Made by a program: the position numbers and the translations under genes. A stretch of DNA of 64,000 bases, from the NCBI GenBank assembly GCA_024398435.1, contig JAKSJD010000009.1, forward strand, positions 28,987 through 92,986. Direction: 5' to 3'. Shown here piece by piece: positions 4,613 to 44,678 of this stretch (the first letter of the stretch is position 1; every line of letters begins with the position of its first letter). This stretch comes from Bacteroidaceae bacterium. GTDB lineage: Bacteria > Bacteroidota > Bacteroidia > Bacteroidales > Bacteroidaceae. The notes under the pieces are model-generated. The model searched no databases. It had not been told where the DNA came from and saw nothing but the letters and a program-made list of their open reading frames with translations.

Positions 4613-4700
4613 ACTCCACTTATATTTCCTCAAACATTTTCTTTCATTTCCACAAGCATTTTCCGACATTTTCCCTAACATTTCCTTTGTCAATCAAAAA
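4613..4700. repeat. 22-bp-period pyrimidine-rich array upstream of the HU-type gene
   Basis: CATTTTC or CATTTCC begins at 4635, 4657 and 4679, exactly 22 bp apart, with a second CATTT copy inside the units at 4645 and 4667 (again 22 bp apart). A weaker unit (4613-4634) precedes them. The last unit contains the -33 element of the promoter at 4686-4716. The sequence word is unrelated to the array at 4733. Confidence 0.55.
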
Positions 4701-4716
4701 TAAAGTACTATCTTTG
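4686..4716 (+). promoter_or_regulatory. Promoter of the HU-type gene
   Basis: TTTG (4686-4689), 19-bp spacer, TATCTTTG (4709-4716): full Bacteroidetes consensus. Transcription should start near 4723, giving a leader of about 180 nt that contains the palindromic array at 4733-4819. Confidence 0.8.
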
Positions 4717-4732
4717 CAGCGAAAAAGTTAGA

Positions 4733-4819
4733 GTCATAAGTTATGACTTCAACGTCATAAGGTTATGTCTCACAAATCATAATGTTACGACTTCAGAGTC
4801 ATAAGTTATGACTTGCAAA
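4733..4819. repeat. Four-unit, 21-22-bp palindromic array in the leader of the HU-type gene
   Basis: Units start at 4733, 4754, 4776 and 4798 (steps 21, 22, 22). The core is the palindrome GTCATAAGTTATGAC, perfect in the first and last units and degenerate in the middle two. In RNA each unit could form a small hairpin; in DNA each could be a dimeric protein site. Confidence 0.7.
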
Positions 4820-4903
4820 ATGAAGCAAGGAATTTTGACGAATGCAAAACGGAAAAGGCAGATTATCAAGTAAATAAAATATAAAACTAAAACAAACATT
4901 ATC

Positions 4904-5524
4904 ATGAAGTACATCAAACAGGAATTTGCGGATTTCCATGCCAAGGGCACTCCTCAGCACTACATCCGCCCTCAAATCGAGGCTCACATCCATTGGAAGG
5001 AACTCATTAGCCGAATGCGCTACCATAACCAAAGTCTTTCGGAAGGCGAAATCGTGACCGTCATGGAACAACTCGAAAAGACGGTGAGCGAACTCTTGGC
5101 TCAGGGATTTGCAGTGGAAATCGGCAATCTCGGCTACCTCTCCCCTTCTCTCGGCCTTAAGAAAGGCAAGGAAATGGATTCGCTCGAAGGCAATGACCCT
5201 AAGCGAAATGCCCAAAGCATCAAGGTGGACGGAATCGATGTGAGCATCAACCGAAAGTTCGTGGAAAAGGTGGACAAGATGGCTCATATAGAATATGGAG
5301 GCACAGTTCGTTTGCGTCAAAAGGTGTACACCAAAACGCAACGACTCGAGAAAGCAAAGGAACACATCCAGAGATACGGTTTTATCCGCATTTTCGACTA
5401 CATGAACCTCGTAAATATCTCTCACACTCAGGCAGTTGTCGAACTTCGCGAATTCGCAAACGACCCAGAAACCCACATTACTCGTCAAGGCAAGAAGGCT
5501 TCGCTCATGTACGTCTTAAAATAA
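4904..5524 (+). CDS. HU-family DNA-binding protein (HU-HIG-like, with C-terminal winged-helix-like part)
   Basis: A 206-residue protein. Residues about 1-125 look like the Bacteroidetes HU-like domain (HU-HIG group): a helical part followed by the beta-arm region FAVEIGNLGYLSPSLGLKKG and a basic IDVSINRKFVEKV segment. Residues about 145-206 (KAKEHIQRYGFIRIFDYMNL then VNISHTQAVVELREF and a short basic tail) read as a helix-turn-helix or winged-helix unit, a fusion known for HU-HIG proteins. Ordinary HU is about 90 residues, so this is more than double. Such proteins bind DNA in the nucleoid and may regulate genes. It stands alone between its own promoter and the amidase promoter; its upstream region holds two 22-bp arrays, which could be its own binding sites (inference). 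Confidence 0.75.
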   Translation: MKYIKQEFADFHAKGTPQHYIRPQIEAHIHWKELISRMRYHNQSLSEGEIVTVMEQLEKTVSELLAQGFAVEIGNLGYLSPSLGLKKGKEMDSLEGNDPKRNAQSIKVDGIDVSINRKFVEKVDKMAHIEYGGTVRLRQKVYTKTQRLEKAKEHIQRYGFIRIFDYMNLVNISHTQAVVELREFANDPETHITRQGKKASLMYVLK

Positions 5525-5589
5525 TACACTTTCCTTCGCTTTCGCACTCCCTTTATGTTGAAAAGTCGGAAAGAATAGAATATTTATCT

Positions 5590-5649
5590 GCCGAAGGACA
5601 AGATTTCGGCCCTTCGGCTTGGAATATTCGGTAATTTGTCGTATCTTTG
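5590..5649 (+). promoter_or_regulatory. Hairpin and promoter upstream of the amidase gene
   Basis: TATCTTTG (5642-5649) with TTG (5619-5621) 20 bp upstream forms the promoter. Just before it an 8-bp stem GCCGAAGG (5590-5597) / CCTTCGGC (5611-5618) may end transcription from the HU-type gene, although no T-tract follows. Confidence 0.6.
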
Positions 5650-5699
5650 CATTGAATATTGCACGTTGCATAGCAACATGCAAGTGAAGAACGTTTACA

Positions 5700-7139
5700 A
5701 TGATCAAGAAAACAATTCATACCATACTCGTCCTCTGCTTGGCCCTCGCCTTGCCTCTCACGGCCATGGGACAAAACGACAAGTTCATCGTCGTTCTCGA
5801 TGCCGGACACGGAGGCCATGATGCAGGTGCAGTAGGACGACCAACCACCAACCGCGAGAAAGACATCAACCTCGCAATCACACTGAAAGTCGGCCAGTTG
5901 CTGAAGAAAAACTGTCCCGATGTGCAGGTGCTCTACACTCGCGACACTGACGTTTTCGTCACTCTCGACGGCCGAGCAAACATTGCCAACAAGGCAAAGG
6001 CAAACCTCTTCGTCAGCATCCACACCAACGCAATCGAGCGCTCGCCTTCGCGTCAGCCAGTGGGTGTACAATCCTACACATTGAGCCTCAAGACGGTAGG
6101 TACAAACCTCGAAGTGGAAAAGCGCGAGAACTCGGTCATCCAGTTTGAAGCCGACGGAGAGCAGAAATACAGTTTTGCCAATCCAAACTCCAGCGAATCG
6201 GACATTATCTTCGAACTCATGCAAGACCAGGACATGCAGGAAAGTGTGAACTTCGCCAAGCTTGCCCAGGAAGAAATGGTAAGAAGCGGTGGACGAAACG
6301 ATATGGGAGTGCTCCAAGCCAATTTGGCCGTACTCCGACTCACCTACATGCCTTCAGTGCTTCTTGAGGTAGGATTCATCTCAACCCCAGCCGAAGAAAC
6401 ATTTCTCATGTCGGACGAAGGACGAACAGTAATGGCTCAGTGTATCTACAACGCCATTTCAAGATACAAAACCCAACATACGGGTCGAATGTCAAACCTT
6501 GAAAAGATTGACACAAAGGCAGCTAACAAAATCGTTGAGGAACGAGAGGCAGAACGCCTGAAACAGGAAGCCGCCCAAGCCGAAGCCGATGCGAAGAAAG
6601 CAGAAGATGAAAGAAAAGCAGATGAAGCACGTGCAGCTCAAGCTGCTGAAGCACAAGCCAAAGCACAGGAAGCTCGCGAAATAGCTGAACGAGACAATGC
6701 CGAAGCTAAGCAAGCCACTGCTAACCGAAAGGCCGCAGAAGCACAACTCAAACAAGCTGACGATGCTCTCAAGAAGGCAGAAAACGAACTCAAACTGGCT
6801 CAGGCAGCGACTCAAAACCCTGCCCTACTATCGAAAATTCCGACTTCTTCAAATTCAAAGACAACTCAACCAACTGCCGGAATCGTGTTCAAAGTTCAGC
6901 TCTTTGCCTCACAAAGAGAAATCAAGAAAGGCAGTGCCGAAATGAAAGGACTTGATGCTGATTCGTTCAAGGAAGGCGACCTCTACAAATACACTTATGG
7001 AGCAACAACCGACTACAACGAGATTCTTCGCATCAAGAAGGAAATCGCAAGCAAGTTCCCCGACACATTCATCGTTGCCTTCAAGGATGGAGTCAAGATG
7101 AACACAAACGAAGCCATCAAACAATGGAGGGCTAAATAA
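5700..7139 (+). CDS. N-acetylmuramoyl-L-alanine amidase (Amidase_3) with coiled coil and SPOR-like C-terminus
   Basis: Secreted zinc amidase that cuts the bond between N-acetylmuramic acid and the stem peptide, used in daughter-cell separation. A signal peptide covers residues 1-24 (hydrophobic core, then TAMG/QN). The Amidase_3 domain spans about 29-260: zinc ligands His37 (DAGHGGHDAG), Glu53 (NREKD) and His108 (SIHTNA), catalytic Glu223 (LLEVGF). An Ala/Glu/Lys-rich coiled coil (about 265-385) links to a C-terminal domain (about 397-475, beginning FKVQLFASQREIKKGSAEM) that resembles a SPOR peptidoglycan-binding domain. The gene for an MCE-domain protein follows after 78 bp in the same direction, an arrangement common in Bacteroidales. 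Length, 479 residues, is normal for this architecture. Confidence 0.92.
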   Translation: MIKKTIHTILVLCLALALPLTAMGQNDKFIVVLDAGHGGHDAGAVGRPTTNREKDINLAITLKVGQLLKKNCPDVQVLYTRDTDVFVTLDGRANIANKAKANLFVSIHTNAIERSPSRQPVGVQSYTLSLKTVGTNLEVEKRENSVIQFEADGEQKYSFANPNSSESDIIFELMQDQDMQESVNFAKLAQEEMVRSGGRNDMGVLQANLAVLRLTYMPSVLLEVGFISTPAEETFLMSDEGRTVMAQCIYNAISRYKTQHTGRMSNLEKIDTKAANKIVEEREAERLKQEAAQAEADAKKAEDERKADEARAAQAAEAQAKAQEAREIAERDNAEAKQATANRKAAEAQLKQADDALKKAENELKLAQAATQNPALLSKIPTSSNSKTTQPTAGIVFKVQLFASQREIKKGSAEMKGLDADSFKEGDLYKYTYGATTDYNEILRIKKEIASKFPDTFIVAFKDGVKMNTNEAIKQWRAK

Positions 7140-7217
7140 CAAGAAAAAAGAAACAGACGCTCACGCGCATATATAATATATAATAATGTGTAACCAAACT
7201 ACATACAAGTTCTAAGG

Positions 7218-8132
7218 ATGAAATCGAAGGAAATAAAAATAGCAATCATAGCAATCATAGCAGTCGTCATAGTTTATCTCGGCATAATCTTCCTAAAGGG
7301 CCTCAAGCTCTTCAGCACTGATAACGTCTACTATGTAGAAATGGCCAACGTAGGAGGACTTGCAAAGTCGGCTGAAGTAACTGCAAGCGGTATGAACATC
7401 GGACAAGTAAAGGACATCACCTACAATGCCGCAAGCCAAATGCTCACAGTGGCTGTAGAACTGAAAGAGGGAATGTCACTCACCAAAGGCAGTCACGCCA
7501 ACATCACAAAAGAACTCCTCGGAGCTCCTAAACTCAATATCGTACTCGGCACAAACCCAAGTGCAACACTCGCAAAGGGTGATACAATCTTCGGTGAAGC
7601 AGGTTCCGACCTCATGGCAGCCGCAGGAAACATGATTCCACAGATAGAGCAAATGATGCCAAAACTCGATTCAATCCTCACTGCTCTGTCTGCCCTCACC
7701 TCCGACCCAGCTCTCATGCAGTCGCTCCACAACCTTGAAGACATTACAAGCAACCTCAAGACAACAACCACAGACATCAACTCAATGCTCGGGAAAGACA
7801 TTCCTCAACTCATGACAAAAGCAAACAACATCTGTGGAAACCTTGAGACAACAACTAGTAAACTCAACCGAATCGACATAGAAGGAATTGCAAACAATGC
7901 CAACAACACACTCAATTCGGCCAACAAGACAATGAACGAGCTCCAACTCTTCACTGGCAAGCTCAACAATCCCAACTCATCACTCGGCAAGCTCCTCAAC
8001 GACGCAAGCGTCTACAACAATCTCGACGCAACAATGGAAAATGCATCCAAGCTGCTCGAGGATATGAGGGAACACCCTTCACGCTATGTACACTTCTCCG
8101 TATTCGGCAAGAAGGACAAGCCACAGGAATAA
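7218..8132 (+). CDS. MCE-domain (MlaD family) lipid-transport protein
   Basis: A 304-residue periplasmic protein anchored by one N-terminal membrane helix (about residues 8-28, KIAIIAIIAVVIVYLGIIFL). The MCE domain occupies about 36-115 (VYYVEMANVGGLAKSAEVT, GMNIGQVKDI, ELLGAPKLNIVLG). The rest is helical and Asn/Thr/Leu-rich, as in the family's channel-forming or needle-like C-termini. MlaD-type proteins form hexamers that move phospholipids between the inner and outer membranes with an ABC transporter; no ABC subunits are encoded nearby, so partners must lie elsewhere. It probably shares a transcript with the amidase, and a terminator follows immediately. Family call is firm; substrate is inferred. 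Confidence 0.88.
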   Translation: MKSKEIKIAIIAIIAVVIVYLGIIFLKGLKLFSTDNVYYVEMANVGGLAKSAEVTASGMNIGQVKDITYNAASQMLTVAVELKEGMSLTKGSHANITKELLGAPKLNIVLGTNPSATLAKGDTIFGEAGSDLMAAAGNMIPQIEQMMPKLDSILTALSALTSDPALMQSLHNLEDITSNLKTTTTDINSMLGKDIPQLMTKANNICGNLETTTSKLNRIDIEGIANNANNTLNSANKTMNELQLFTGKLNNPNSSLGKLLNDASVYNNLDATMENASKLLEDMREHPSRYVHFSVFGKKDKPQE

Positions 8133-8139
8133 GCCACTA

Positions 8140-8166
8140 CCCCACACCTCCGTGGGGTTTGTGCTT
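8140..8166 (+). terminator. Intrinsic terminator after the amidase/MCE operon
   Basis: CCCCAC (8140-8145) pairs with GTGGGG (8152-8157) and is followed by TTTGTGCTTT. Confidence 0.75.
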
Positions 8167-8489
8167 TAAATAATTGCCTTCAAAAACGCAAAAACGAATA
8201 CAAAGCCACGCAAATAGAGAATTGTCTTATTTAAATTTCATACAAATAAAACATTCTCAACAAGCAAAATTGGCAAATAAACGTAAAGTGCTGATTTTTC
8301 AGCAATATAGAGATGCTTTTACAAGATGAAAAAATAAGCATTTCATAAGTTAAAAAATGATAAACCGCTGAATAGCAAAGGTATGATAAAATACGCTTTA
8401 AAATGTGCAAAAACCTTATACAATTGTGTAAGTTGCTGAAACAAAAACAATTAAGCATAAAAACCTTAAAACTACACAACAAAACACAT

Positions 8490-8520
8490 TTTGCCATTCC
8501 AAAAAGAAGTTGTACCTTTG
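8490..8520 (+). promoter_or_regulatory. Promoter of dnaA
   Basis: TTTG (8490-8493), 19-bp spacer, TACCTTTG (8513-8520). The AT-rich 320 bp before it (8167-8489) hold no gene, and no TTATCCACA-type DnaA box was noticed there. Confidence 0.8.
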
Positions 8521-8575
8521 CAGCGTAGGAATTAAAATGGTAAGCTAAACGCAAGCTAAATTCGAAATCAAAGAG

Positions 8576-9979
8576 ATGAACAAAGAGTTGAAAGAAATGT
8601 GGAATGCGTGCGTTGAGATCATCAAAGACAACATAACTCCTAGCCAATTCGACACATGGTTTTCATGCATTGAGCCAAAATCCTATGACGGACAACAGCT
8701 CATTATTACAGTGCCAAGCCATTTTGTGTACGAGCAACTGGAAGCTAACTACTGCGACTTATTAGCTAAAGTAATAGCCAGAGTGTATGGCAAAGGCACA
8801 AAACTCGCCTATAGCATACAGGAGATACAACATAAGTCTGAAATCAACAAACCATCTACAGCCAACCATAACATAACCAAGCAAGGGAAGGCATCATCTG
8901 CAGTGACCAACACTCCAGATGCTGCAATACAGTCCACTTCTGCAGAAGATCTGGATTCCCAGCTGAAGGAAAACTACACCTTCGACAACTTTATCGAAGG
9001 CGATAGCAACCGCTTGGCTCGAAGCGTTGGCGAAGCCATTGCCAAAAATCCGGCAAAGACTTTCAACCCAATGTTCATTTACGGACCTTCTGGATGTGGA
9101 AAAACCCACCTCATCAATGCTATCGGATGGAGCCTCAAAGAGCAACACCCAAGCATGAGAGTACTCTACATATCTGCCCACCTCTTCCAAGTGCAGTACA
9201 CAGAAGCCGTAAGACAAAACAAGACAAACGACTTCATAAACTTCTATCAAACAATAGATGCTCTCTTGATTGATGACGTTCACGAACTGTCAGGTCAGAC
9301 AAAGACACAGAACACGTTCTTCCACATCTTCAACCATCTGCACCTCAACAACAAGCAAATCATTCTTACAGCCGACAGACCTCCTATCGACATCATCGGA
9401 TTGGAAGACAGATTGCTCACACGTTTCAAATGGGGACTTCAGGCAGAAATTGAAAAGCCAACAAAAGCACTTTGCAGAGCTATTATCAATCATAGAGTAA
9501 AACAGCAAAACCTCCAAATCCCAGTCAATGTAATCAACTACATTGCAGAAAAGGTAAATGGAAGCGTGAGAGATATCGAAGGAATCATCAATTCCATGCT
9601 CGCATATTCGGTAGTATATAAGAGCGATATCACAATGAAGTTGGCCGACCTTGTGTTGCCAAGATACATAAAGGTAGATACCACTCCAATCAATATCGAC
9701 GATATCAAGAAACTGGTTTGCAAGCACTACCACATTACGGAAACCGAACTCTGTTCACAATCCCGTCGCCAGCCAATCAACCTCATCAGGCAGACAACAG
9801 CATATCTGGCAAGCAAGCTCACAGAGATGTCGAACTCACAGATAGGTCAGAACCTGGGCGGAAGAACTCATGCAACCATACTCCACTCTATCAAACACGT
9901 TCAGGAATTGGCAGAAGTCGACGACAACTTCAGGAATGATGTCGAAGAACTTACCAACGAAATCAAACGAAGTAAATAA
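8576..9979 (+). CDS. dnaA: Chromosomal replication initiator protein DnaA
   Basis: AAA+ ATPase that binds DnaA boxes at oriC and opens the origin. 467 residues, normal length. Domain I (about 1-75) starts LKEMWNACVEIIKDNITPSQF; a variable linker follows; the AAA+ core begins near 120 (YTFDNFIEGDSNRLA) with Walker A GPSGCGKT at 170-177 and Walker B LLIDDVHEL (Asp233-Asp234); domain IV (about 360-467) has the DNA-binding signature IGQNLGGRTHATILHSIKHV. The gene is monocistronic: own promoter, strong terminator at 10022. dnaN and recF are not adjacent, as is usual in Bacteroidetes, so dnaA alone does not locate oriC. Confidence 0.97.
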   Translation: MNKELKEMWNACVEIIKDNITPSQFDTWFSCIEPKSYDGQQLIITVPSHFVYEQLEANYCDLLAKVIARVYGKGTKLAYSIQEIQHKSEINKPSTANHNITKQGKASSAVTNTPDAAIQSTSAEDLDSQLKENYTFDNFIEGDSNRLARSVGEAIAKNPAKTFNPMFIYGPSGCGKTHLINAIGWSLKEQHPSMRVLYISAHLFQVQYTEAVRQNKTNDFINFYQTIDALLIDDVHELSGQTKTQNTFFHIFNHLHLNNKQIILTADRPPIDIIGLEDRLLTRFKWGLQAEIEKPTKALCRAIINHRVKQQNLQIPVNVINYIAEKVNGSVRDIEGIINSMLAYSVVYKSDITMKLADLVLPRYIKVDTTPINIDDIKKLVCKHYHITETELCSQSRRQPINLIRQTTAYLASKLTEMSNSQIGQNLGGRTHATILHSIKHVQELAEVDDNFRNDVEELTNEIKRSK

Positions 9980-10021
9980 AAAGTCTATTCAAGTTCACTA
10001 AAAACATAATGAAATCTTCTT

Positions 10022-10053
10022 TGGGGTTGCAGCAATGCAATCCCATTATTTTT
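10022..10053 (+). terminator. Intrinsic terminator of dnaA
   Basis: TGGGGTTGCA (10022-10031) and TGCAATCCCA (10036-10045) form a 10-bp stem with a GCAA loop, then TTATTTTTT. A TTACTTTG (10053-10060) follows directly. Between here and the nrdJ promoter (10060-10460) only AT-rich DNA is seen; the short open frames there have no recognisable product. Confidence 0.85.
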
Positions 10054-10459
10054 TACTTTGGATTAACATCCGAAACAAAACATTTACCAAAAGGAATAAC
10101 ATTTTCATAATCATTCTCCTAAAAACATCCAATAAAAAAGATAACACAATGGCATTGAAGAATATCCAAATGACACAATTATCACAAACAAAATCACAAT
10201 TCACGCACACAAAACTTACATTATGTCAAACATTACAATAATGCAAAAACAAATACTTAACAAAAGCAATTGCCAACACCGATTTTACACCTTTTGCAGA
10301 TAAAACAATGTAAACCATTCTAAACACCTCATTATCAGCGGAATTTTCCGTTTTGGAAAACTTTTCGCATAACTAAAATTTTTATTTCGTTAAAAATCAG
10401 TCATTTAACGATTCAAAATGGAAAACTTTTAACTTTTATTAAAAATTTTTCTAAAAACA

Positions 10460-10491
10460 TTTGGTAAATTCAAATAAGTGTTGTAGCTTTG
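10460..10491 (+). promoter_or_regulatory. Promoter of nrdJ
   Basis: TTTG (10460-10463), 20-bp spacer, TAGCTTTG (10484-10491). It gives a leader of about 155 nt in which no cobalamin-riboswitch box was found. Confidence 0.75.
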
Positions 10492-10652
10492 CAAGCGATT
10501 TCGATTTAGCAATGTGAGAAGATTACCAAAATGTATCATTGGCGAATGATATTTGTTCCTTAAACAAGAAAACCAACAAACCAACAATTTTATTTTTTAA
10601 GGAAACTAATCAATTCATCTGTACACAAAAATAAATAAGAAATATAAAAGAA

Positions 10653-13606: not shown

Positions 13607-13624
13607 ATAAGGTTAATATATAAT

Positions 13625-13671
13625 AAAATGTGCTTTGTAGGTTGTACATTGCACATTTTTTATTATCTTTG
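13625..13671 (+). promoter_or_regulatory. folB terminator overlapping the MFS-transporter promoter
   Basis: AAAATGTGC (13625-13633) pairs with GCACATTTT (13651-13659), followed by more T: an intrinsic terminator. Its loop carries TTG (13642-13644), and TATCTTTG (13664-13671) comes right after the T-tract, with a 19-bp spacer. One element thus ends folB and starts the next gene. Confidence 0.65.
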
Positions 13672-13719
13672 CAAATGAAATCCTATAATACCGATATTAA
13701 TTAATCAATTCAATAAACT

Positions 13720-15195: not shown

Positions 15196-15231
15196 GCCTC
15201 AAAGACTCGACTTTTCTGATTCATCGGAAAA

Positions 15232-15341
15232 TTCATTATAAGGTTTGACCTCATTTCTTATTAGAAGTGAGGTCATTTCTTATAAGACTCACGCCTATTT
15301 CTTATAATGTTTCGGATGTTTTCTTATAATGTTTTCTAGAA
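15232..15341. repeat. Five-unit 22-bp array, TTTCTTATAA word
   Basis: TTTCTTAT starts at 15254, 15276, 15298 and 15320, each exactly 22 bp apart; a variant TTCATTAT at 15232 makes a fifth unit. The first 10 bp are conserved and the remaining 12 drift, with GAGGTCA or similar before the next unit. It lies between the convergent MFS and GH26 genes. Confidence 0.8.
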
Positions 15342-15363
15342 AGCATATTGCTTCGCAAATCAT

Positions 15364-15429
15364 ACGATCATGGTCGTAAGGCCATACGATCATGTTCGTA
15401 AGGCGATACGATCGTGATCGTATCGATAA
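15364..15429. repeat. Three-unit 22-bp array, ACGATCATGNTCGTA word
   Basis: Three units (15364, 15386, 15408) share a near-palindromic core TACGATCATGATCGTA. They stay in the same 22-bp phase as the neighbouring array (15320 + 2 x 22 = 15364), with one unrelated 22-bp segment between. A second locus at 37320 uses almost the same word. Confidence 0.8.
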
Positions 15430-15480
15430 AACTCCTATAGAAATTTACGAATGAAGCAAGAATAGGAAAAATATGGAGCT

Positions 15481-16908: not shown

Positions 16909-16939
16909 TAATAAGATTTTTGATTGGTATTATCTTTAT

Positions 16940-21666: not shown

Positions 21667-21790
21667 TCGTTAAGAATCGGCAATTATTTTACTTCATTGG
21701 GTGTTTTTTCATTGTTTTTGCCCGATTTCTTGCTGTTCAGAGAGCAAAGGCTTGCCAATAATGAGGTTGTGTTTAGCAAAAAATTACCTC

Positions 21791-21878
21791 TCGAACCGCA
21801 AACAATTGGCCTTCGAACCGCGAACAATTGGCCTTCGAACCGCGAATAATTGACCTTCGAACCGCGATGTTTTTTCAA
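21791..21878. repeat. Four-unit 22-bp array, TCGAACCGCGAA word
   Basis: TCGAACCGC starts at 21791, 21813, 21835 and 21857, exactly 22 bp apart. The first three units continue with AACAATTGGCCT or a close variant; the fourth decays after CGCGA. The reverse complement aligns with the arrays at 31014 and 44569. It lies between the GH43-GH8 gene's end and the rpsP promoter. Confidence 0.85.
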
Positions 21879-30669: not shown

Positions 30670-31005
30670 AAGCGTTGCGCGTTGCAGCGTTGCAGTCGAT
30701 TTTGTCATGTATGCAGTTCTTTCTTTTCCTAAGATTTTCCAGGATTCTTATTATTAATTATAATTATAATATTAATAATATATAATAATATAATATAATA
30801 TATACACTATATCTATACTACTATACTATTACTATATTATTATTACTTATTATTACTATACTATATTCTTATATACTATATATATAAAATATAATAATAT
30901 ATAAATATAATATATATAATATATTGATATATAGATAGTTAGGTGAGAAAGTGGAAAAATGCAGGTATTACAAAAACAGCTGCAACGCTGCAACGCGCAA
31001 CGCTT
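30670..31005. repeat. Exact 26-bp inverted repeat flanking an A/T-only block
   Basis: The left arm (30670-30695, core GCGTTGCGCGTTGCAG) is the exact reverse complement of the right arm (30980-31005). Each arm is built from short GCGTTGC words. The 284 bp between them include 30736-30945, almost free of G and C and made of TATAAT-like strings. It sits between convergent rnfA and the secreted-protein gene. There is no open frame of note, no flanking target duplication was noticed, and its origin is unknown. Confidence 0.8.
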
Positions 31006-31013
31006 GTGGGATA

Positions 31014-31079
31014 ATTTCTCGCGGTTCATGAGGTCATTTCTCGCGGTTCGGGAGGTGATTTCTTGCGGTTCGGAGAGTC
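31014..31079. repeat. Three-unit 22-bp array, ATTTCTCGCGGTTC word
   Basis: ATTTCTCGCGGTTC or its variant starts at 31014, 31036 and 31058, exactly 22 bp apart, each unit ending GAGGTC or similar; a decayed fourth may begin at 31080. It starts 8 bp after the right arm of the 26-bp inverted repeat and ends just before the terminator of the convergent gene. Confidence 0.8.
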
Positions 31080-31090
31080 ATTGTCAGCTA

Positions 31091-35808: not shown

Positions 35809-35872
35809 CCCTAATTTAAACCGTTTACTTTTACGAACTAAATGCTATTAATCTTATTTCTTACTTGCTTGT

Positions 35873-36532: not shown

Positions 36533-36613
36533 TTCTTTTTTCTTGTTTTTGAGTTGTTTGAACTAATGTTTTTGAGTTTCTGCAACATTAGACGCAACGA
36601 ATTTACGAAAAGT

Positions 36614-36646
36614 TGCAGACATACGAAAATTTTTCACTAACTTTGC
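36614..36646 (+). promoter_or_regulatory. Promoter of the FNT-like gene
   Basis: TAACTTTG (36639-36646), with TTG (36614-36616) 22 bp upstream, 29 nt before the ATG. Confidence 0.6.
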
Positions 36647-36674
36647 ACCGAAATTCATTAACCTAAAAGAAATC

Positions 36675-37289: not shown

Positions 37290-37319
37290 ACATCGGAAAA
37301 AACTTATAGAGGTTTCGCT

Positions 37320-37385
37320 CATACGAACATTATCGTATTGCCATACGAACATGATCGTATCGCCGTACGAACATGATCGTATTTC
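37320..37385. repeat. Three-unit 22-bp array, CATACGAACATGATCGTA word
   Basis: Units start at 37320, 37342 and 37364, exactly 22 bp apart. The word is nearly the same as at 15361-15426, with AACAT for ATCAT, and its core TACGAACATGATCGTA is close to a perfect palindrome. It lies between the stop of the FNT-like gene and that gene's terminator, so it is probably transcribed. Confidence 0.85.
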
Positions 37386-37406
37386 TGACGGAGCAATAGA
37401 AAATTG

Positions 37407-37436
37407 CCGACGGACATTGGTTCGTCGGTTTTTCTT
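37407..37436 (+). terminator. Terminator after the FNT-like gene
   Basis: CCGACGGAC (37407-37415) pairs with GTTCGTCGG (37420-37428, one wobble) around an ATTG loop, followed by five T. Confidence 0.85.
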
Positions 37437-37524
37437 TATATAAATATAATAATGTGAGCCAATAGCTACTACTATTAAATTATGTTAAAAAACGAGGAAA
37501 ACACAAAAAAAGTTCTACGAAAGT

Positions 37525-37555
37525 TTTAGTTACTAAAGAAATAGTTTTAACTTTG
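37525..37555 (+). promoter_or_regulatory. Promoter and candidate operator of the second blaI/M56 operon
   Basis: TAACTTTG (37548-37555) is the -7 box, 29 nt before the ATG. A perfect 13-bp palindrome TTTAGTTACTAAA (37525-37537) replaces the -33 region and is a plausible BlaI-type operator; MecI/BlaI sites elsewhere are also short palindromes over the promoter. Confidence 0.55.
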
Positions 37556-37584
37556 CCAGCAAGAAACAAATAAACCATTAGAAT

Positions 37585-37956
37585 ATGAAAGAAGAAAAGA
37601 ACCTCACGCTCACCAAGGGCGAAATGCAAGTAATGAACATACTTTGGGCTGCCGGAAAGGCTTGTGACGTACACGAAGTGGTGGACAAATACGAAGATCC
37701 TAAACCTGCCTACACCACTGTAGCCACTTTCCTGAAGATACTCACGACTAAACAATTCGTAGATTACAAGAAAAGCGAAGGCCGTCAATATCTCTTCTTC
37801 CCCCTACTCTCAAAAGCTGAATACACCCGAAGAATACTCCAGGATGTGAAGGACAACTTCTTCCAAGGCAGTGCCTCATCGCTTCTCAGCTTCTTCATGC
37901 AAGAGGAAAACCTCAGCGAAGACGAGATTCAGGAACTCATCAACATGGTAAAGTAA
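37585..37956 (+). CDS. BlaI/MecI-family transcriptional repressor (second copy)
   Basis: A 123-residue winged-helix repressor, paralogous to the one at 2141-2539. Shared features are LTLTKGEMQVMNILWAAGKA, DPKPAYTTVATFLKILTTKQ with FVDY, and the dimerisation tail SFFMQEENLSEDEIQELINM, which nearly repeats the first copy's SYFLEEENLSIEEMKELLDK. It is followed after 21 bp by its M56 partner. The two pairs probably arose by duplication and sense different signals; no resistance gene is near either. Confidence 0.9.
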   Translation: MKEEKNLTLTKGEMQVMNILWAAGKACDVHEVVDKYEDPKPAYTTVATFLKILTTKQFVDYKKSEGRQYLFFPLLSKAEYTRRILQDVKDNFFQGSASSLLSFFMQEENLSEDEIQELINMVK

Positions 37957-37977
37957 CCCTAAAACAGCACGAATCGT

Positions 37978-39717
37978 ATGGGAACACTATTCATTTATGC
38001 AATAAAATCGGCAATCTGTCTGGCTCTGCTTTATCTGCCCTACACCTTGCTCATGCGGAAAGAGACATTCCACAGTTTCAACCGCAAGGCCCTTCTCATG
38101 GTCATTCTCCTCTCGCTCATCTTGCCTTTCATCAGCATTCCGATGTGGAATTCGGCCATTCTCACTGCTCTTCAAGGTCAGAAAGAAGCAATCATCGAGA
38201 TTGGAATCCCTACTCTATCGGGCGCATCCACAGTTTCGAGTCAGGCAATTGAAGTCGATGCGACTGCAGAAAGCTCAATCAGTTGGGCAAATCTGCTCGT
38301 ATTAATATATATAATAGGTGTAATCGTCTGCCTCATTTGGAAGGTAGTGGAAGTAGTTCGTCTCGAAAGATTCATCCCGAAAAGTTGCCTCTGGACAGAG
38401 AAGAAAGACGGAATCAACATCTTCTGCCATGTAGGAAAGGTAAGTCCTTTCAGTTGGATGAAGAACATCGTGATTGGAGAAGACGACTACAACCAGCATC
38501 CATCCGTGCTCATCCACGAAAAGGCACACATCAAGCTTTTGCACTCATGGGACACAATCCTCCTCTCGCTGGTCGAAGTGTTGCAATGGTTCAACCCTTG
38601 CATCTGGATGCTCGACCTCACAATGAAGGAAGTTCACGAGTTCGAAGCCGATGATGCAGTACTTCGTTCAGGCATTTCAGCAAAACAATATCAATTATTA
38701 TTAATCGAGAAAGCAGTGGCCGGCAGCAAATATTCGTTTGCAAACGGATTCAACCACAGCCTTCTAAAAAAACGTTTTATTATGATGATGAAAGACAAAT
38801 CAAACAAGTGGAACCGTACAAAGATGTTGTACTTGATTCCAGCAGCTGCAATCGCACTCACAGCCTTTGCAACGAACGAGAGCCTTACAGAGGCATTCGC
38901 ACCAGAAGAAAAGGCTGACTCTCAACAGGCAACAGCCATTGCCACCGACTCACAAACAGGCGAAATCGTCACTCAGAAAGCAAATTTGGCAGCAAACAAC
39001 GATTCTCCTGCTAACAATGATGCTGTTTACAGTGAGCCAGATGATTCCATAACCGAACTCATGAAGAAAATCCCAGGAGCAAAGATTGACGAAAACGGAA
39101 AAGCCACACTCAATGGCAAGGACATCACGAAGGTTCTTGTCAATGGAAAGGAAGTATCAGTTGACAACAATGAGAGAAAGTTGTTAGACGTGACCGTATC
39201 AAGAACAGACAAGGCAAAATCACAGGCAGACAATGAAAGAAAGTTGTTAGATGTAACCGTATCAAGAACAGACAAGGCTAATGAAGCTACAGACACCGAC
39301 GATGACATTTGGCAAGTTGTAGAAGAAATGCCAGAGTTCGAGGGCGGAGCGGAAGCAATGATGGCATTCCTTGCCAAAACTATTAAATATCCAGCATCAG
39401 CAATAGAGATGGGCATTCAGGGAAGAGTGATGGTTAAATTTGTGGTCGACAAGACAGGAATCATAAGAGATACAGAGATTGCTAAATCACTGGATGCCGA
39501 CCATACATACATGCCATCACGCAAAAACGAACAGGGAGAAGAACTCACACCCGAACAATACCAACAACTCTATGCAAAATATGAGGCAGGTTGCAAGGCT
39601 TGCGATGATGAAGCACTCAGATGCGTCAAGGCAATGCCAAAATGGAAACCAGGCAAACAAAGAGGAAAGGCAGTCAATGTGTCATTCACCATCCCTATCT
39701 CATTCCGTTTGCGATAA
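37978..39717 (+). CDS. M56 membrane metallopeptidase with TonB-type C-terminal domain (second copy)
   Basis: A 579-residue BlaR1-type protein paralogous to the one at 2553-4373 over its first 300 residues. Membrane segments lie near 4-25, 38-58, 100-121 and 283-298. The zinc motif is HEKAH at 180-184, with MKEVHEFEADDAVLRSG carrying the third ligand. Beyond the last helix, LMKKIPGAKIDENG and LNGKDITKVLVNGKEV resemble a plug-like segment seen in Bacteroidetes TonB-linked proteins. A 21-residue unit containing NERKLLDVTVSRTDKA occurs twice in tandem, and a TonB C-terminal domain ends the protein (about 450-579, PEFEGGAEAMMAFLAKTIKY to the end). This architecture suggests envelope sensing linked to proteolysis of the repressor. 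Confidence 0.9.
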   Translation: MGTLFIYAIKSAICLALLYLPYTLLMRKETFHSFNRKALLMVILLSLILPFISIPMWNSAILTALQGQKEAIIEIGIPTLSGASTVSSQAIEVDATAESSISWANLLVLIYIIGVIVCLIWKVVEVVRLERFIPKSCLWTEKKDGINIFCHVGKVSPFSWMKNIVIGEDDYNQHPSVLIHEKAHIKLLHSWDTILLSLVEVLQWFNPCIWMLDLTMKEVHEFEADDAVLRSGISAKQYQLLLIEKAVAGSKYSFANGFNHSLLKKRFIMMMKDKSNKWNRTKMLYLIPAAAIALTAFATNESLTEAFAPEEKADSQQATAIATDSQTGEIVTQKANLAANNDSPANNDAVYSEPDDSITELMKKIPGAKIDENGKATLNGKDITKVLVNGKEVSVDNNERKLLDVTVSRTDKAKSQADNERKLLDVTVSRTDKANEATDTDDDIWQVVEEMPEFEGGAEAMMAFLAKTIKYPASAIEMGIQGRVMVKFVVDKTGIIRDTEIAKSLDADHTYMPSRKNEQGEELTPEQYQQLYAKYEAGCKACDDEALRCVKAMPKWKPGKQRGKAVNVSFTIPISFRLR

Positions 39718-39789
39718 GCTATTCCTCAAGCGAAATGCTTAAAACAACATAAAAGAAAAATAAAGTAAATCAGTTTAAAGTAAACAACA

Positions 39790-39831
39790 AAGCCAGATTG
39801 ACTGTGAAGTCCATCTGGCTTATTCTTTTGC
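39790..39831. terminator. Bidirectional terminator between M56 and manA
   Basis: AAGCCAGAT (39790-39798) pairs with ATCTGGCTT (39823-39831), continued inside by GACT/AGTC. T-rich sequence follows on both strands, so it can serve both convergent genes. Confidence 0.8.
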
Positions 39832-39835
39832 AAGG

Positions 39836-40810
39836 TCAATTGAAGTGCTTATTGTCGATATAAACCTCAAGCAATTCAGTCATTCCCTGTTCGGTTGCAG
39901 GCATAAGGTCGAGGTCGGCAATGCTTGCAGGAATCACACACGATTCGCCTTTCTTCAGTTCCACAACCTCAATGGCCGAAGCCTTGTCCCTCATCTTTAT
40001 CTTCAAACCTCCATTGAGACAAGTATAGACAATGAACGAATCGTACTTATATAGTTTGCGATGGAATGCTCGTGTAATATTGTGAATCTTAACCGTAAAG
40101 AACGGACTTTCCGTAATGGCAACTGGCTTGTTGATTGCCGCAAGATAATCGGTTCGGTAGGTTGGATAGAGAGTGTAATCGATTGCATCGCGAGCCATTT
40201 CGGTATGAAGTTGGCGAGGACGGCCATCAAGACCTGGACGATTGTAGTCGAAGATACGATAAGTGACATCACTGCTCTGCTGAACCTCAGCCAATCGAAT
40301 GCCTCCGCAAATGGCATGAACACGGCCGGAAGGAATGAAGAACACATCGCCTCGATGCACTGGATGGGATTGCAGAACCTCCATAATCGTTCCATCATTC
40401 ACCCGTTGCTCATATTCATCAGGCGTAATCTGGCGGTTGAAACCCGAATAAAGCCTTGCTCCCGGTTCGGCATCCATAATAAACCACATCTCCGTCTTGC
40501 CCATCGAGTTGTGTCTTTCCTTTGCAATCGCATCGTTTGGATGCACCTGAATCGACAAATCATCATGGGCATCGATGAACTTTATGAGCAAAGGGAACTG
40601 CAAACCATAAATATCCACAACCTTCTTGCCAAGCAATGCCTCTCCATGTTCCCCTGCCAATTGGCTCAAGGAACTGCCTGCAAGTGAGCCATTCTCAACG
40701 ACCGATTCCTTGCCAGGCACTGCACTGACAATCCAATCTTCGCTTCCCCACACAAGTGTGAAAGGATTGTGGCGGAAGAGCAATGGATAAAGTGATTTAC
40801 TGTCTGCCAA
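39836..40810 (-). CDS. manA: Mannose-6-phosphate isomerase, type I (TTG start)
   Basis: Cytoplasmic zinc enzyme that interconverts mannose-6-phosphate and fructose-6-phosphate. 324 residues, typical of the short Bacteroidetes form. Metal-site signatures are LIKFIDAHDDLSIQVHPND and KTEMWFIM; GDVFFIPSGRVHAICGGI is the conserved active-site segment. A stop lies one codon above the TTG at 40810 and no ATG precedes the homology, so TTG is the likely start. It is 22 bp after rfbC, last of a leftward group with aroB and rfbC. With manC it supplies GDP-mannose, though the two genes are far apart. Confidence 0.92.
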   Translation of the reverse strand: MADSKSLYPLLFRHNPFTLVWGSEDWIVSAVPGKESVVENGSLAGSSLSQLAGEHGEALLGKKVVDIYGLQFPLLIKFIDAHDDLSIQVHPNDAIAKERHNSMGKTEMWFIMDAEPGARLYSGFNRQITPDEYEQRVNDGTIMEVLQSHPVHRGDVFFIPSGRVHAICGGIRLAEVQQSSDVTYRIFDYNRPGLDGRPRQLHTEMARDAIDYTLYPTYRTDYLAAINKPVAITESPFFTVKIHNITRAFHRKLYKYDSFIVYTCLNGGLKIKMRDKASAIEVVELKKGESCVIPASIADLDLMPATEQGMTELLEVYIDNKHFN

Positions 40811-40832
40811 AACTTATCGCAATTATCTTGTT

Positions 40833-41402
40833 TTACTGAATCTCGTTATAAATGAAAGGGCTGTCAATGTCCTTCAAGAGTGGATGATTGCTGTCTTTCT
40901 CGCTGAGAAGAATATCATCGGTATTCAACTGCCAATCAATGCCAAGGTCGGGGTCGTCCCATGCAATTGCGCCCTCACTCTGTGGAGCATAATAGTTGTC
41001 GCACTTGTACTGAAACACCGCGATTTCACTCAAAACGGCAAAACCATGAGCAAAACCACGTGGAATGAAGAACTGACGATGGTTGTCTTCAGTAAGTTCC
41101 ACGGCTACATACTTGCCGAATGTAGGACTTCCCTTGCGAATATCCACAGCAACATCAAGTACTCTGCCCTTCACCACTCTCACCAACTTTGCCTGTGCAA
41201 AAGGAGGTTTCTGGAAATGAAGGCCACGAACAACTCCTCGGCTCGACTTGCTTTCATTGTCCTGAACAAAGTTAACCTTCCCGACTTTCTCCTCAAAATC
41301 CCTTTGTGAGAATGATTCGAAGAAATAACCTCTCGCATCGTTAAATATGCGAGGTTCAATGATTTTCACATCATCAATTGCTGTATCTACTACTGTTATC
41401 AT
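40833..41402 (-). CDS. rfbC: dTDP-4-dehydrorhamnose 3,5-epimerase
   Basis: A 189-residue cupin-fold enzyme of dTDP-L-rhamnose synthesis for surface polysaccharide. Features are EPRIFNDARGYFFESFSQRD, the catalytic-His segment RGVVRGLHFQKPPFAQAKLV, FIPRGFAHGFAVLSE and WDDPDLGIDW. The start overlaps the aroB stop (ATGA), so translation is coupled. Usual partners rfbA, rfbB and rfbD are absent here. Confidence 0.95.
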   Translation of the reverse strand: MITVVDTAIDDVKIIEPRIFNDARGYFFESFSQRDFEEKVGKVNFVQDNESKSSRGVVRGLHFQKPPFAQAKLVRVVKGRVLDVAVDIRKGSPTFGKYVAVELTEDNHRQFFIPRGFAHGFAVLSEIAVFQYKCDNYYAPQSEGAIAWDDPDLGIDWQLNTDDILLSEKDSNHPLLKDIDSPFIYNEIQ

Positions 41403-42388
41403 TGTCCGTCTCTATAAAAATCCAATGCTTCAAATATCTGTTCCTTTGTTACGGTTCGATTGATTCTGACCTTTCCAACCTCTGAAAGAAGAGCCATCTT
41501 CACCTTGTCTGCAACATTCTTCTTATCATGACGCATGAGTTGGAAGAGAGCTTCATAATCATCACAACCGATTTCGAACTTTCCATAATGCTCTGTAATG
41601 AACTTCACAACCTCTCGCATTGTCTCGGTTGGGAACTCATAATAGGCACTCGAAAGATACAATTCACAAATCATACCCCAAGCCACTGCATAACCATGAA
41701 GAACAGGTGTGCCTTTCTGAAGTGCGAAACTTTCGACAGCATGACCAACCGTATGGCCGAAGTTCAATGCCTTGCGGATTCCCTGTTCGTATGGGTCGGT
41801 TTCCACAATCTTCTTCTTCACGGCAACACTCTTGCGAATCATTCCGTCGAGAAGGGAATAATCGATTTCGTCGAGATCGAAAGCAAGAAGTTGGGCAAGA
41901 TGTTCCTTATCAGAAATCAATCCATGTTTGAGCATTTCGGCATAACCCGAAAGAATATTCTCATGGTCGAGAGTGCGAAGGAATGCAGTGTCGAGAATGA
42001 CTTTCACTGGTTCGCGGAATACTCCGACCTCATTCTTGAAGCCGTTGAAGTTGACTCCCGTCTTTCCTCCCACCGAGGCATCAACCATCGAGAGCAATGT
42101 TGTTGGGATGTTGATGAACTTGATTCCACGCTTGAAAGTGGCTGCAGCAAAACCACCGAGATCCGTAACCATTCCTCCTCCAAGATTGATGAGAAGGCTG
42201 TGGCGAGTGGCACCCTTGTTGCCGAGTTCACTCCAAACGATTGATGCAGTTTCGAGTGTTTTGTTTGCATCGGTTGCAGGAATGACTATATGCTGGGCAT
42301 CCTTCATGGATTCCGAATCTTTCACAACTGGCCAACACAATTCGTGTGTGGTTTCGTCAGTCAGAACAAATACTTTATCGTAAGTCAC
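41399..42388 (-). CDS. aroB: 3-dehydroquinate synthase (GTG start)
   Basis: Second enzyme of the shikimate pathway, turning DAHP into 3-dehydroquinate with NAD+ and a divalent metal. 329 residues, slightly short for the family. Signatures are LLINLGGGMVTDLGGFAAAT, NIPTTLLSMVDASVGGKTG, SGYAEMLKHGLI and the metal-site LNFGHTVGHAVES. The GTG at 42388 is the only candidate after the in-frame TAA a few codons upstream. It is coupled to rfbC and starts 53 bp after the GH97 gene. Confidence 0.95.
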   Translation of the reverse strand: MTYDKVFVLTDETTHELCWPVVKDSESMKDAQHIVIPATDANKTLETASIVWSELGNKGATRHSLLINLGGGMVTDLGGFAAATFKRGIKFINIPTTLLSMVDASVGGKTGVNFNGFKNEVGVFREPVKVILDTAFLRTLDHENILSGYAEMLKHGLISDKEHLAQLLAFDLDEIDYSLLDGMIRKSVAVKKKIVETDPYEQGIRKALNFGHTVGHAVESFALQKGTPVLHGYAVAWGMICELYLSSAYYEFPTETMREVVKFITEHYGKFEIGCDDYEALFQLMRHDKKNVADKVKMALLSEVGKVRINRTVTKEQIFEALDFYRDGQ

Positions 42389-42441
42389 CTTATTTCTTTA
42401 TTATAAATATATACGTTTAATTTCCGTTTGAGAGAATGAAT

Positions 42442-44496
42442 TTACTTCACGATTACAAAGCCGCCATCATGGAGCAAATGAAGCTTCACCTTCTTAGGGT
42501 CCTTGATTTTGAGCTGGCTCTTCACTGGTTCGCGGTTGGCATCATCGCTGTAGAGGGTGACAACATCGCCCTTGCTGACAAATCGGGAAAGGTCGAACAC
42601 CTTATCACACTCTTCTGCAGCATTGTTGCCTGCAATGTACCAAGTGCCTTCGTGCTGACGGGCAAGAACTGCAAACTGCCCAGGATAACCATCAACATAC
42701 TTTGTATCGTCCCATGTGGTTGGAACCTGCTTCATAAATTCAACGCTTACCTTTGGTGCTCCGCCTTCTGCCTCTGGCTTGAGGTTCTCTGGAGTGACAG
42801 CAAAGTTCTGGATTGGATTCTGGAAGAGAACTGCCTGTGCAAGTTCGTGACAATCAGTTGTCTTACGAGTTACACCGCCCTTGTTGCCTCTTGCAAGATG
42901 TCGATTGAGGAACGAGCCACCGAATTCCATACAACCAACCGTGTTGCGAATGAATGGATGAGTGGAAGTGTCCTTTGCCTCACGGTCGGCTGAACCCTGA
43001 CCGAAGATTAGGTTTTCGCTGGCGAGAACTGCCTCACTGCCTACATAGTTTGGATACATTCTTTCCCAACCGCGAGGGAGTGTGCATCCGTGGAAGATTA
43101 CCATAATACCATTATCATAAGCATCGCTGAGAACGGCCTCATACTGGCGGATTGTCTCTTGCTTATCGCCTCCCCAGAAGTCGACCTTTATACCTTTCAC
43201 ACCATTCTTGTTCATCCATTTCATCACTTCCTTGCGATAGATTGGATTGTCCATCTTGTTGATAGGACTCTGAACAATATCGTTCCAATAGCCACTTGAA
43301 CTGAACCAAAGGAACACATCAACATTCTTGCTGTGAGCATACTTTATGAGGTCTTCCATCTTTTCGTAGCCGATTTGTTCGTCCCAACCAGCATCGATGA
43401 GAATGTAAGGGTAACCCATTTCGCTTGCAAGGTCGATGAATGCAACCTGGTCGTTCCAGTTCATACTTGCATCCTGCCAAACAATCCAACTCCATGTGCT
43501 CTTTCCGAACTTGAAGTCCTTCTTTGGATAGTTCTTGAGAATCTTATCATCAACGAGTGTTGAAGCCTTAACTCCAGGACCATAAAGAGGTTCGACTGTA
43601 TTCCAAGCAGCAGTGGTTTCCACGATTGGAGCAAGTGTCTTTCCCACTGTGATTGTGCGCCAAGGGGTTGCATTTGGAAGACCGAAAGCAGGTTCGATGG
43701 TTCCGTTTCCATTGTTTTCCTCTGGCATTGGGAAGTCGACTGTGAAGAGATTTCCTTCTTTCACATCGCTCAGGCGGCAACCACAATACTTGCTGTCAAC
43801 GCCTGTTTCGCTTACGAGGACCCATCCGTCCTCACCCACCTTGAAGAGGCAAGGGAATGTGAAACCGTGACGAGAATGAGATTCTGCTATTGGACGGTCA
43901 TATGCATACACTTCCTCATAACTTGGTTTTGAGCGCTTCCATCCTACCATTGCATCGCTTTGTGGGCACATGAATGTAGTTGTTTGTGATGGGAAACGGA
44001 AACCTGTCTCTTCGTTCATCACTCGGATGCTGCCTGTATCGCCCTGACGAGGAACAAAGTAACGGAAAGCAATGTCGTTGTCGCTTACATAGAACTGAAT
44101 GTCGTAACGGATTGCACGACGGCCTTCGCCTGCCTGAAGATGCAGGGTATATACGTTTGCCTTGTAGTTGACAGTGCTCTTCTTACATTTTTCGAGTGTG
44201 TAGGAATAGTCGACTTCGGCAAGTTCCTTTGTTGCACCTGCTGGCAATTTGGCTACAGAAAGGTTGGAACTGAAATCACCTATATTGCTCTTGAAGCCGA
44301 GAGGACTTTCTGCGAGCATCTGCTTGCCATCATAAGTTACTGAATAGACAGCCTTGCCGCCTTTCACATCGATATCCACTTTGAGGCGACCATCAGGTCC
44401 GCTTACCGTTGCTGTCTGTCCGAATGCCATTACCGACTGGAACAAACACATTGCTGCCAAAGCAGCTGTTTTCATGAGGAAATGTTTCATATACAT
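42442..44496 (-). CDS. Secreted GH97 glycoside hydrolase
   Basis: A 684-residue exported enzyme of family GH97 (alpha-glucosidase or alpha-galactosidase type). Signal peptide about 1-27 (ending SVMAFG/Q). An N-terminal beta-sandwich (about 30-290), a central (beta/alpha)8 barrel (about 300-580, with WSWIVWQDASMNWNDQVAFI and YILIDAGWDEQIGYEKMEDL) and a C-terminal beta domain match the family layout. Asp439 in GIKVDFWGGDKQE is at the place of the nucleophile of retaining members, which would favour an alpha-galactosidase-like retaining enzyme over the inverting SusB type; this is inference. It lies between nrnA and aroB in the same direction, with a 22-bp array upstream and no clear promoter of its own. 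Confidence 0.88.
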   Translation of the reverse strand: MYMKHFLMKTAALAAMCLFQSVMAFGQTATVSGPDGRLKVDIDVKGGKAVYSVTYDGKQMLAESPLGFKSNIGDFSSNLSVAKLPAGATKELAEVDYSYTLEKCKKSTVNYKANVYTLHLQAGEGRRAIRYDIQFYVSDNDIAFRYFVPRQGDTGSIRVMNEETGFRFPSQTTTFMCPQSDAMVGWKRSKPSYEEVYAYDRPIAESHSRHGFTFPCLFKVGEDGWVLVSETGVDSKYCGCRLSDVKEGNLFTVDFPMPEENNGNGTIEPAFGLPNATPWRTITVGKTLAPIVETTAAWNTVEPLYGPGVKASTLVDDKILKNYPKKDFKFGKSTWSWIVWQDASMNWNDQVAFIDLASEMGYPYILIDAGWDEQIGYEKMEDLIKYAHSKNVDVFLWFSSSGYWNDIVQSPINKMDNPIYRKEVMKWMNKNGVKGIKVDFWGGDKQETIRQYEAVLSDAYDNGIMVIFHGCTLPRGWERMYPNYVGSEAVLASENLIFGQGSADREAKDTSTHPFIRNTVGCMEFGGSFLNRHLARGNKGGVTRKTTDCHELAQAVLFQNPIQNFAVTPENLKPEAEGGAPKVSVEFMKQVPTTWDDTKYVDGYPGQFAVLARQHEGTWYIAGNNAAEECDKVFDLSRFVSKGDVVTLYSDDANREPVKSQLKIKDPKKVKLHLLHDGGFVIVK

Positions 44497-44568
44497 TATA
44501 TATTATATTATTGTTTTTTGTTGTTTTGATTCAATTTTTTATGCCTATGAAGGTTCCGAAAAAAGAAA

Positions 44569-44678
44569 CGCGAGAAATGACTCTGAGTTTCGCGAGAAAT
44601 TGCCTTGAGTTTCGCGAGAAATGACCTCGAGTTTCGCGAGGTTTTTTCGAGGGGTTCGCAAGACTTATTTTTCGATGG
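44569..44678. repeat. Five-unit 22-bp array, CGCGAGAAAT word
   Basis: CGCGAGAAAT starts at 44569, 44591 and 44613; CGCGAGGTTT at 44635 and CGCAAGACTT at 44657 continue the same exact 22-bp step with growing divergence. Reverse-complemented units contain ATTTCTCGCG and GAGGTC as in the array at 31014. It lies between nrnA and the GH97 gene. Confidence 0.8.

What the first reader, a model, noticed from the sequence alone, without database searches (positions are those of the whole stretch)
4613..44678. Intergenic arrays with an exact 22-bp period at six loci
Short tandem arrays occur in six gaps (4613-4700 plus 4733-4819, 15232-15429, 21791-21878, 31014-31079, 37320-37385, 44569-44678). Units abut directly, with no spacers, and start positions differ by exactly 22 bp (one 21-bp step). 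The sequence of the unit differs from locus to locus while the period does not. None lies in a coding region. The length is about two helical turns, which would put every unit on the same face of DNA, so an oligomerising DNA-binding protein is one possible reader; slippage-born minisatellites with a mechanically fixed unit length are another. P. gingivalis has MITEs with 22-23-bp tandem repeats, which may be a distant parallel. I know of no description of a period-conserved, word-variable class like this.
Basis: partly seen in the sequence, partly recalled or inferred. Interest (0 to 1): 0.85.

Follow-up and report, generated by a model that had tools for sequence, protein, structure and literature searches.

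The report
HU-protein paralogs with private 22-bp arrays
Short 21-23-bp tandem repeats scattered between genes of this gut bacterium probably are the DNA addresses of a family of HU-like DNA-binding proteins, because the genes of such proteins usually carry their own version of the repeat at their own promoter.

Summary
The arrays are real: seven noncoding period-22 arrays in the window, none in 20 shuffles. In 729 kb of this genome noncoding arrays have period 22 (35) or 21 (6), at most 2 at any other. But words form families, and 22 is not universal. All nine HU-HIG genes (PF18291) over 140 aa found here have a 21/22-bp array within 450 nt upstream, mostly just after the -7 element, each with its own word except one duplicated pair; 53 of 481 genes do overall. 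Sister species: 22 of 33 against 5 of 155. Two other families: 8 of 10 with a C-terminal extension, 0 of 10 without. Of 63 noncoding arrays 38 match a reader word, 37 with its period. Best reading: HU-HIG paralogs each bind, and probably autoregulate through, a private tandem array.

The parts
4709..4716 (+). Bacteroidetes-type -7 promoter element TATCTTTG of the HU-HIG gene, 15 nt before the array
   Evidence: read; motif TA..TTTG within 45 nt upstream of 19 of 32 reader arrays against 15.5% at random offsets in the same upstream regions; the -7 consensus is recalled
4732..4819 (+). promoter/5'UTR array of the window's own candidate reader gene, dyad word AGTCATAAGTTATGACTTCAA, steps 21,22,22
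4904..5524 (+). candidate reader: HU-HIG protein, 206 aa, HU domain plus C-terminal winged-helix-like domain
   Evidence: PF18291 52.9 bits against cut-off 26.2; C-terminal 69 aa modelled as HHH-EE, pLDDT 76.6
4619..4701 (.). weak, irregular period-22 tract upstream of the same gene; doubtful
15361..15422 (.). array of word A (ATACGATCATGATCGTA), three dyads; same word as the promoter array of the HU-HIG gene at G000:C28:109-579
21776..21867 (.). array of word B (rc of TTCGCGGTTCGAAGGTCAATTG), upstream of rpsP; reader not identified
31007..31082 (.). array of word B (ATTTCTCGCGGTTCGGGAGGTC) between convergent genes; reader not identified
37320..37383 (.). array of word A (CATACGAACATGATCGTATTGC), 30 nt after a stop codon
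44569..44640 (.). array of word B (rc ATTTCTCGCGAAACTCAGAGTC) in the NrnA-GH97 gap; no array in the first 520 nt downstream in 12 of 13 sister genomes that have the gene; reader not identified

Best explanation
The arrays are tandem binding sites of a family of HU-HIG proteins (a HU domain with a C-terminal extension, often winged-helix-like). Each paralog has its own, often dyad-symmetric word, repeated about 2 to 6 times at a spacing that goes with the protein (22, 21 or 23 bp, about two helical turns). Readers and words turn over between species, which is why words are species-specific while the period stays. Shown: arrays, period, the link with HU-HIG promoters, matching words and periods. 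Inferred: binding, autorepression, effect of dispersed arrays, mode of spread.
For: All 9 HU-HIG genes over 140 aa found in this genome have a 21/22-bp array within 450 nt upstream (8, two of them near the threshold of 17 with scores 20 and 18; the window's); 53 of 481 genes do overall, HU-HIG genes in the sample included (Fisher p 4.9e-9). In sister species 22 of 33 (one of them the own word-A reader met again; some orthologs near-identical) against 5 of 155 control genes (p 4.2e-16). In two other families, 8 of 10 HU-HIG genes with a C-terminal extension have one, 0 of 10 without. The one HU-HIG-like gene that my model found in 1.36 Mb of named relatives (L088, 29.7 bits, 135 aa from the inner start, so under my 140-aa cut) follows TATCTTTG and a 23-bp array. 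Canonical HU genes here have none (L300, L301). With single linkage 54 of 61. Word units are dyad-rich: 12 of 35 own units with at least 7 of 9 pairs against 11.9% in shuffles.
Against: No binding or expression data. In the genus 11 of 33 HU-HIG genes show no 21/22-bp array (one had only 1 nt of upstream sequence). The window's own reader word and both words upstream of C29:41502 have no dispersed match in the sample. Readers L292, L294 and L296 have arrays but no winged helix by eye, so that domain is not needed. Promoter sequence shared by descent explains part of the protein-word correlation (driven by orthologs). None of the 8 promoter arrays in other families has TA..TTTG within 60 nt before it. 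Only 4 of 62 arrays have a suitably oriented -7 motif close by, two of them reader arrays, so autorepression does not carry over to dispersed arrays. A first word-dispersal test in sister species was weaker (one further locus in G005, none in G010).
Confidence: 0.77

Rival explanations
1. The arrays are cores of a selfish MITE-like repeat family (as BrickBuilt was described), which happens to have inserted near HU-HIG genes or carries promoters; the protein is not the reader.
For: D loci share outward flanks (60 of 312 flank pairs above every block shuffle). Arrays come and go between species at one gap (2 of 14 genomes). BrickBuilt has leader, tail and bidirectional promoter activity (PMC4596501 abstract).
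Against: Does not explain why HU-HIG paralogs have different words at their promoters, nor that HU-HIG genes in another family carry the promoter array with no dispersed array in 100 kb sampled. No Y1 transposase in the genome, which is 77.6% complete; other transposases were not searched. Compatible with the best explanation as the way of spreading.
Confidence: 0.12
2. RNA-level element: hairpin arrays in the 5'UTR bound by the protein or acting on mRNA stability.
For: Reader arrays mostly lie downstream of a -7 element and so are probably transcribed; many words are dyads.
Against: Word-D arrays lie in divergent gaps at 9 of 11 non-reader loci with both neighbours called, so many may be untranscribed; outward TA..TTTG motifs were present on 18 of 21 sides but also on 13 of 28 sides of divergent gaps without arrays, so this is weak. 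In word A the inner pairs of the dyad vary without compensation (by eye on the matches). RNA folding was not run.
Confidence: 0.07
3. Slippage-born minisatellites with a mechanically fixed unit length.
For: Copy number varies and some arrays look recent (7.5 copies in L195).
Against: Period 21 or 22 goes with the word and reader family within one genome; no array at 21-23 in the stretches sampled from other families of the order, the class and the phylum.
Confidence: 0.02
4. Sequence-independent helical phasing: curved DNA for general nucleoid proteins.
For: 21-22 bp is about two turns.
Against: Words are conserved within families and match reader promoters, which curvature alone does not need. 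Curvature was not computed.
Confidence: 0.02

Closest known systems
BrickBuilt minisatellite/MITE of Porphyromonas gingivalis (PMC4596501)
   Same: Spacerless tandem repeat of 23 nt, intergenic, 19 dispersed loci; its smallest element, BrickBuilt_14 (84 nt), lies between PGN_0871 (-) and PGN_0872 (+), a 'DNA-binding protein (PF00216)' (section 5 and Table 1). PF00216 is the HU/Bac_DNA_binding family.
   Different: One word only, described as a MITE with leader and tail; no reader proposed in the abstract, sections 5 and 9 and passages that I saw. The reading of BrickBuilt_14 as a reader-promoter array is mine and untested.
HU-HIG domain proteins (Pfam PF18291)
   Same: The candidate reader is a member.
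   Different: I found no paper on their function in the library: search 'HU-HIG' listed 4 papers, of which one passage of PMC11035120 was seen and only lists such a protein in a table; the other three have unrelated titles. Searches gave no listing on this subject. A 2017 analysis of the HU superfamily is recalled, not seen.
Plasmid iterons and their Rep proteins (recalled)
   Same: Direct repeats of about 17-22 bp near the gene of the protein that binds them, autoregulation.
   Different: Chromosomal, many word families in one genome, no replication initiator. Not tested here.
REP/BIME with RAYT transposases (recalled)
   Same: Dyad units in intergenic mosaics.
   Different: No Y1 transposase found here; fixed 21-22-bp direct period.
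AspA centromere-binding protein (PDB 5k5q)
   Different: Weak match; no HU domain (recalled).

Membership tests
HU-HIG (PF18291) for the gene at 4904-5524 | score above the Pfam gathering cut-off | tested here: met
   52.9 bits against 26.2
HU-HIG (PF18291) for the gene at 4904-5524 | C-terminal winged helix (one of the three fusions in the family's name) | tested here: inconclusive
   single-sequence AF2 of 69 aa: HHH-EE, pLDDT 76.6; Foldseek best E 0.014, none at E 0.001 or below; the top 50 are mostly ribosomal chains that I take to be eS25, a winged helix (recalled), with 5k5q, 2vqc (named winged-helix) and regulators among them
BrickBuilt | 23-nt repeat of the BrickBuilt word | tested here: not met
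   period here 21-22; the BrickBuilt word itself was not compared
BrickBuilt | leader and tail with terminal inverted repeats | tested here: inconclusive
   shared outward flanks at D loci, termini not determined
CRISPR array | unique spacers between repeats | tested here: not met
   units abut; in 15231-15334 half of each unit varies
REP/BIME | RAYT (Y1) transposase in the genome | tested here: not met
   0 matches in the 77.6% complete genome
autoregulatory operator array | array at the promoter of the gene of its proposed binding protein | tested here: met
   9 of 9 own genes, by position only
autoregulatory operator array | specific binding and repression | not testable with these tools
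   needs bench work

The most novel reading that the evidence does not exclude
These bacteria run several mutually exclusive 'chromatin addresses' at once: a set of HU-HIG paralogs, each nucleating on its own private 21-23-bp word array at its own promoter and, for the widest words (A, D), at about a dozen other places, with family-specific positions (word D between divergent genes, word A mostly at gene ends). This would be a multi-channel, self-limiting nucleoid-marking system that continually invents new reader/word pairs.
Probability: 0.35. Interest if true: 0.93.

Novelty: new variant of a known kind. Interest (0 to 1): 0.8.

Why it matters
It gives a candidate function and targets to a protein family known here only as a domain architecture, explains a repeat class that is widespread in the stretches sampled from this bacterial family, may explain BrickBuilt, and offers natural sets of protein/word pairs for studying how DNA specificity and helical spacing evolve. 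It is directly testable, because each reader names its own site.

Tried and rejected
RAYT/REP hypothesis: no Y1 transposase. Word A is absent from 40 relatives at E 0.001. G015's word TGAATCATCAGTCTTTCATGGC is one array plus one distant match with 3 mismatches; G016 and G010 have 1 and 4 such matches. Rfam: no family in the window at gathering thresholds. Plasmid records: no match to word A. HU-HIG in viral contigs: 139 pattern matches, none a relative. PDB sequence search: one match at E 0.0077, named SAKe6BE-L3, judged spurious. The Mantel test of protein against word similarity (rho 0.23, 0 of 2000) is confounded by orthologs and not counted as main evidence.

Rows left out of counts. Of 112 PF18291 matches in the genus (14 own, 98 sister) 50 places were fetched (48 sister); so absence of a given reader in a sister genome is not established. 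In one search, 49 loci gave 45 proteins: 33 over 140 aa and 12 shorter (3 with an array 300 nt or more before the start); L313 duplicates the L312 protein or nearly so, L346 and L358 match my model only weakly and L356 not at all. Several had little upstream sequence (L340 1 nt, L338 82, L330 108, L350 150, L331 293). Of 14 own PF18291 rows, 9 are the readers, L291 (126 aa) has only a low-complexity trace, L300 and L301 are canonical HU without array, and the two at C32:233-824 showed no array in the scan of L024. In G107 and G114, 20 of 38 rows were looked at. In one search the window gene is represented by the doubtful 4619 tract, because the fixed-lag detector misses the 21,22,22 array. The trees are quick ones with weak inner branches (9 of 27 under 80).
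Full report
1. The observation. TRF and anchor-word spacing confirm period-22 arrays in all six gaps; only 4613-4700 is weak and irregular. Noncoding autocorrelation in the window peaks at 22 and again at 44, coding DNA does not. Seven period-22 arrays were found in 30 noncoding gaps, none in 20 shuffles. In 41 stretches of the same genome (728,576 bases with the window, of 2,315,765; a genome 77.6% complete) the noncoding counts were 35 at period 22, 6 at 21 and at most 2 at any other; a crude ORF mask put 4 more at 22 and 2 at 21 into coding DNA, and a codon-usage gene caller then placed the 4 at 22 between genes and left the 2 at 21 in genes.

2. Breadth. TRF on sampled stretches, noncoding arrays: same genus 10 at 22 and 2 at 23 (240 kb); same family 4 at 22 (158 kb); 80 named loci, mostly Bacteroidaceae/Prevotellaceae, 27 at 22, 10 at 21, 6 at 23, and also 14 at 14 (1.36 Mb); stretches from 16 genomes of other families of the order none at 21-23 (197 kb); class and phylum none (200 and 180 kb); E. 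coli none (100 kb). Later samples of five HU-HIG-rich genomes of other families (G107 and G114 100 kb each; G113, G124, G139 40 kb each) had no noncoding array at any period; a same-family genome (G018, 80 kb) had them.

3. Words form families. Word A (ATACGAWCATKWTCGTA) occurs at 13 places, two of them contig ends that may be one, and word D (GTACYWAACGTTWRGTAC) at 13 places in the genome as held. Words B and C share halves and grade into one another (by eye). Units are dyad-rich in all three sets tested: at least 7 of 9 pairs in 12 of 35 own, 10 of 28 named and 6 of 10 genus-and-family units, against 12%, 7% and 5% in shuffles.

4. The gene after the array at 4732-4819 is a HU-HIG protein. 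Looking upstream of the other PF18291 genes showed an array at every one over 140 aa: word A at C28:112, D at C4:36525, a C-type word at C2:82360 and C1:232760 (near-identical proteins with the same word), E at C10:10119, 21-bp words at C1:70246 and C28:153420, 21- and 22-bp arrays at C29:41502. Two canonical HU genes have none. Controls and sister species are given in the evidence fields. Among 42 HU-HIG proteins over 134 aa, 32 have an array at 21-23; it ends a median 81 nt before the ATG, and in 19 of the 32 TA..TTTG lies within 45 nt before it, against 15.5% at random offsets.

5. Word and period go together. Nine loci (L302-L310) had been fetched because they carry words A or D; without them it is 30 of 51. 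Period agrees in 37 of 38 (29 of 30). Single linkage at a 99.9% null gives 54 of 61, 53 of 54 with the period of their component's reader, with the caution that chaining joins two readers through one composite array. On a tree of 23 non-redundant readers period changes 4 times, as few in 3 of 300 shuffles.

6. A later test. A two-unit pattern from the G010/G006 reader (period 21) was searched in 17 genomes of the genus. Readers of this kind were seen only in G010 and G006, but only about half of the genus's HU-HIG places were looked at. The earlier test with another word gave less.

7. Outside the family. In G107 and G114, from two other families with many PF18291 genes, 8 of 10 genes with a C-terminal extension have a 21/22-bp array 45-71 nt before the start, 0 of 10 without; the extension was judged by eye on partly cut proteins, three of the arrays score 17-18, near the threshold of 17, and none has TA..TTTG within 60 nt. 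As no dispersed array was found there, the promoter array may be older and the dispersal a later step (inference).

8. Dispersed arrays. Of non-reader D loci with both neighbours called, 9 of 11 lie in divergent gaps, against 50 of 253 gaps of at least 80 nt overall; 6 of the 11 were fetched for their word. Outward TA..TTTG motifs lie 93-207 nt away on 18 of 21 sides, against 13 of 28 sides of divergent gaps without arrays (half-gaps, not quite the same measure). Flanks of D loci resemble one another outward (60 of 312 pairs above every shuffle). Word A lies at 8 of 9 loci with context in convergent or co-directional gaps. At the NrnA-GH97 gap only 2 of 14 genomes have an array, with different words: arrays come and go.

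9. Known work. No listing of my ten paper searches pointed to a description of this class beyond the single-word BrickBuilt element; apart from the listings I saw only the abstract, sections 5 and 9 and passages of PMC4596501 and one passage of PMC11035120. BrickBuilt_14 of P. gingivalis next to a HU-family gene fits the model.

10. What is not shown: binding, repression, any effect of dispersed arrays, and how they spread.

Noticed in passing
window 30752-30937: About 185 bp of nearly pure AT repeats beside the array at 31007, between convergent genes.
   Followed up: no
window 2553-4373 and 37585-39717: Two BlaR1-type M56 peptidase genes, the second with a TonB C-terminal domain and a BlaI/MecI-like repressor gene in front.
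   Followed up: no
named relatives L025-L104: A second noncoding period peak at 14 bp (14 arrays in 1.36 Mb), against 2 in the own sample of that call.
   Followed up: no
L294, L296: Two near-identical HU-HIG genes with near-identical promoters on different contigs: a recent duplication of reader plus array.
   Followed up: partly
L410, L412: Very long 19-, 22- and 23-bp arrays (up to about 20 units) in a same-family genome.
   Followed up: no
L195: A 7.5-copy 22-bp array that begins with the stop codon of the NrnA-like gene.
   Followed up: partly
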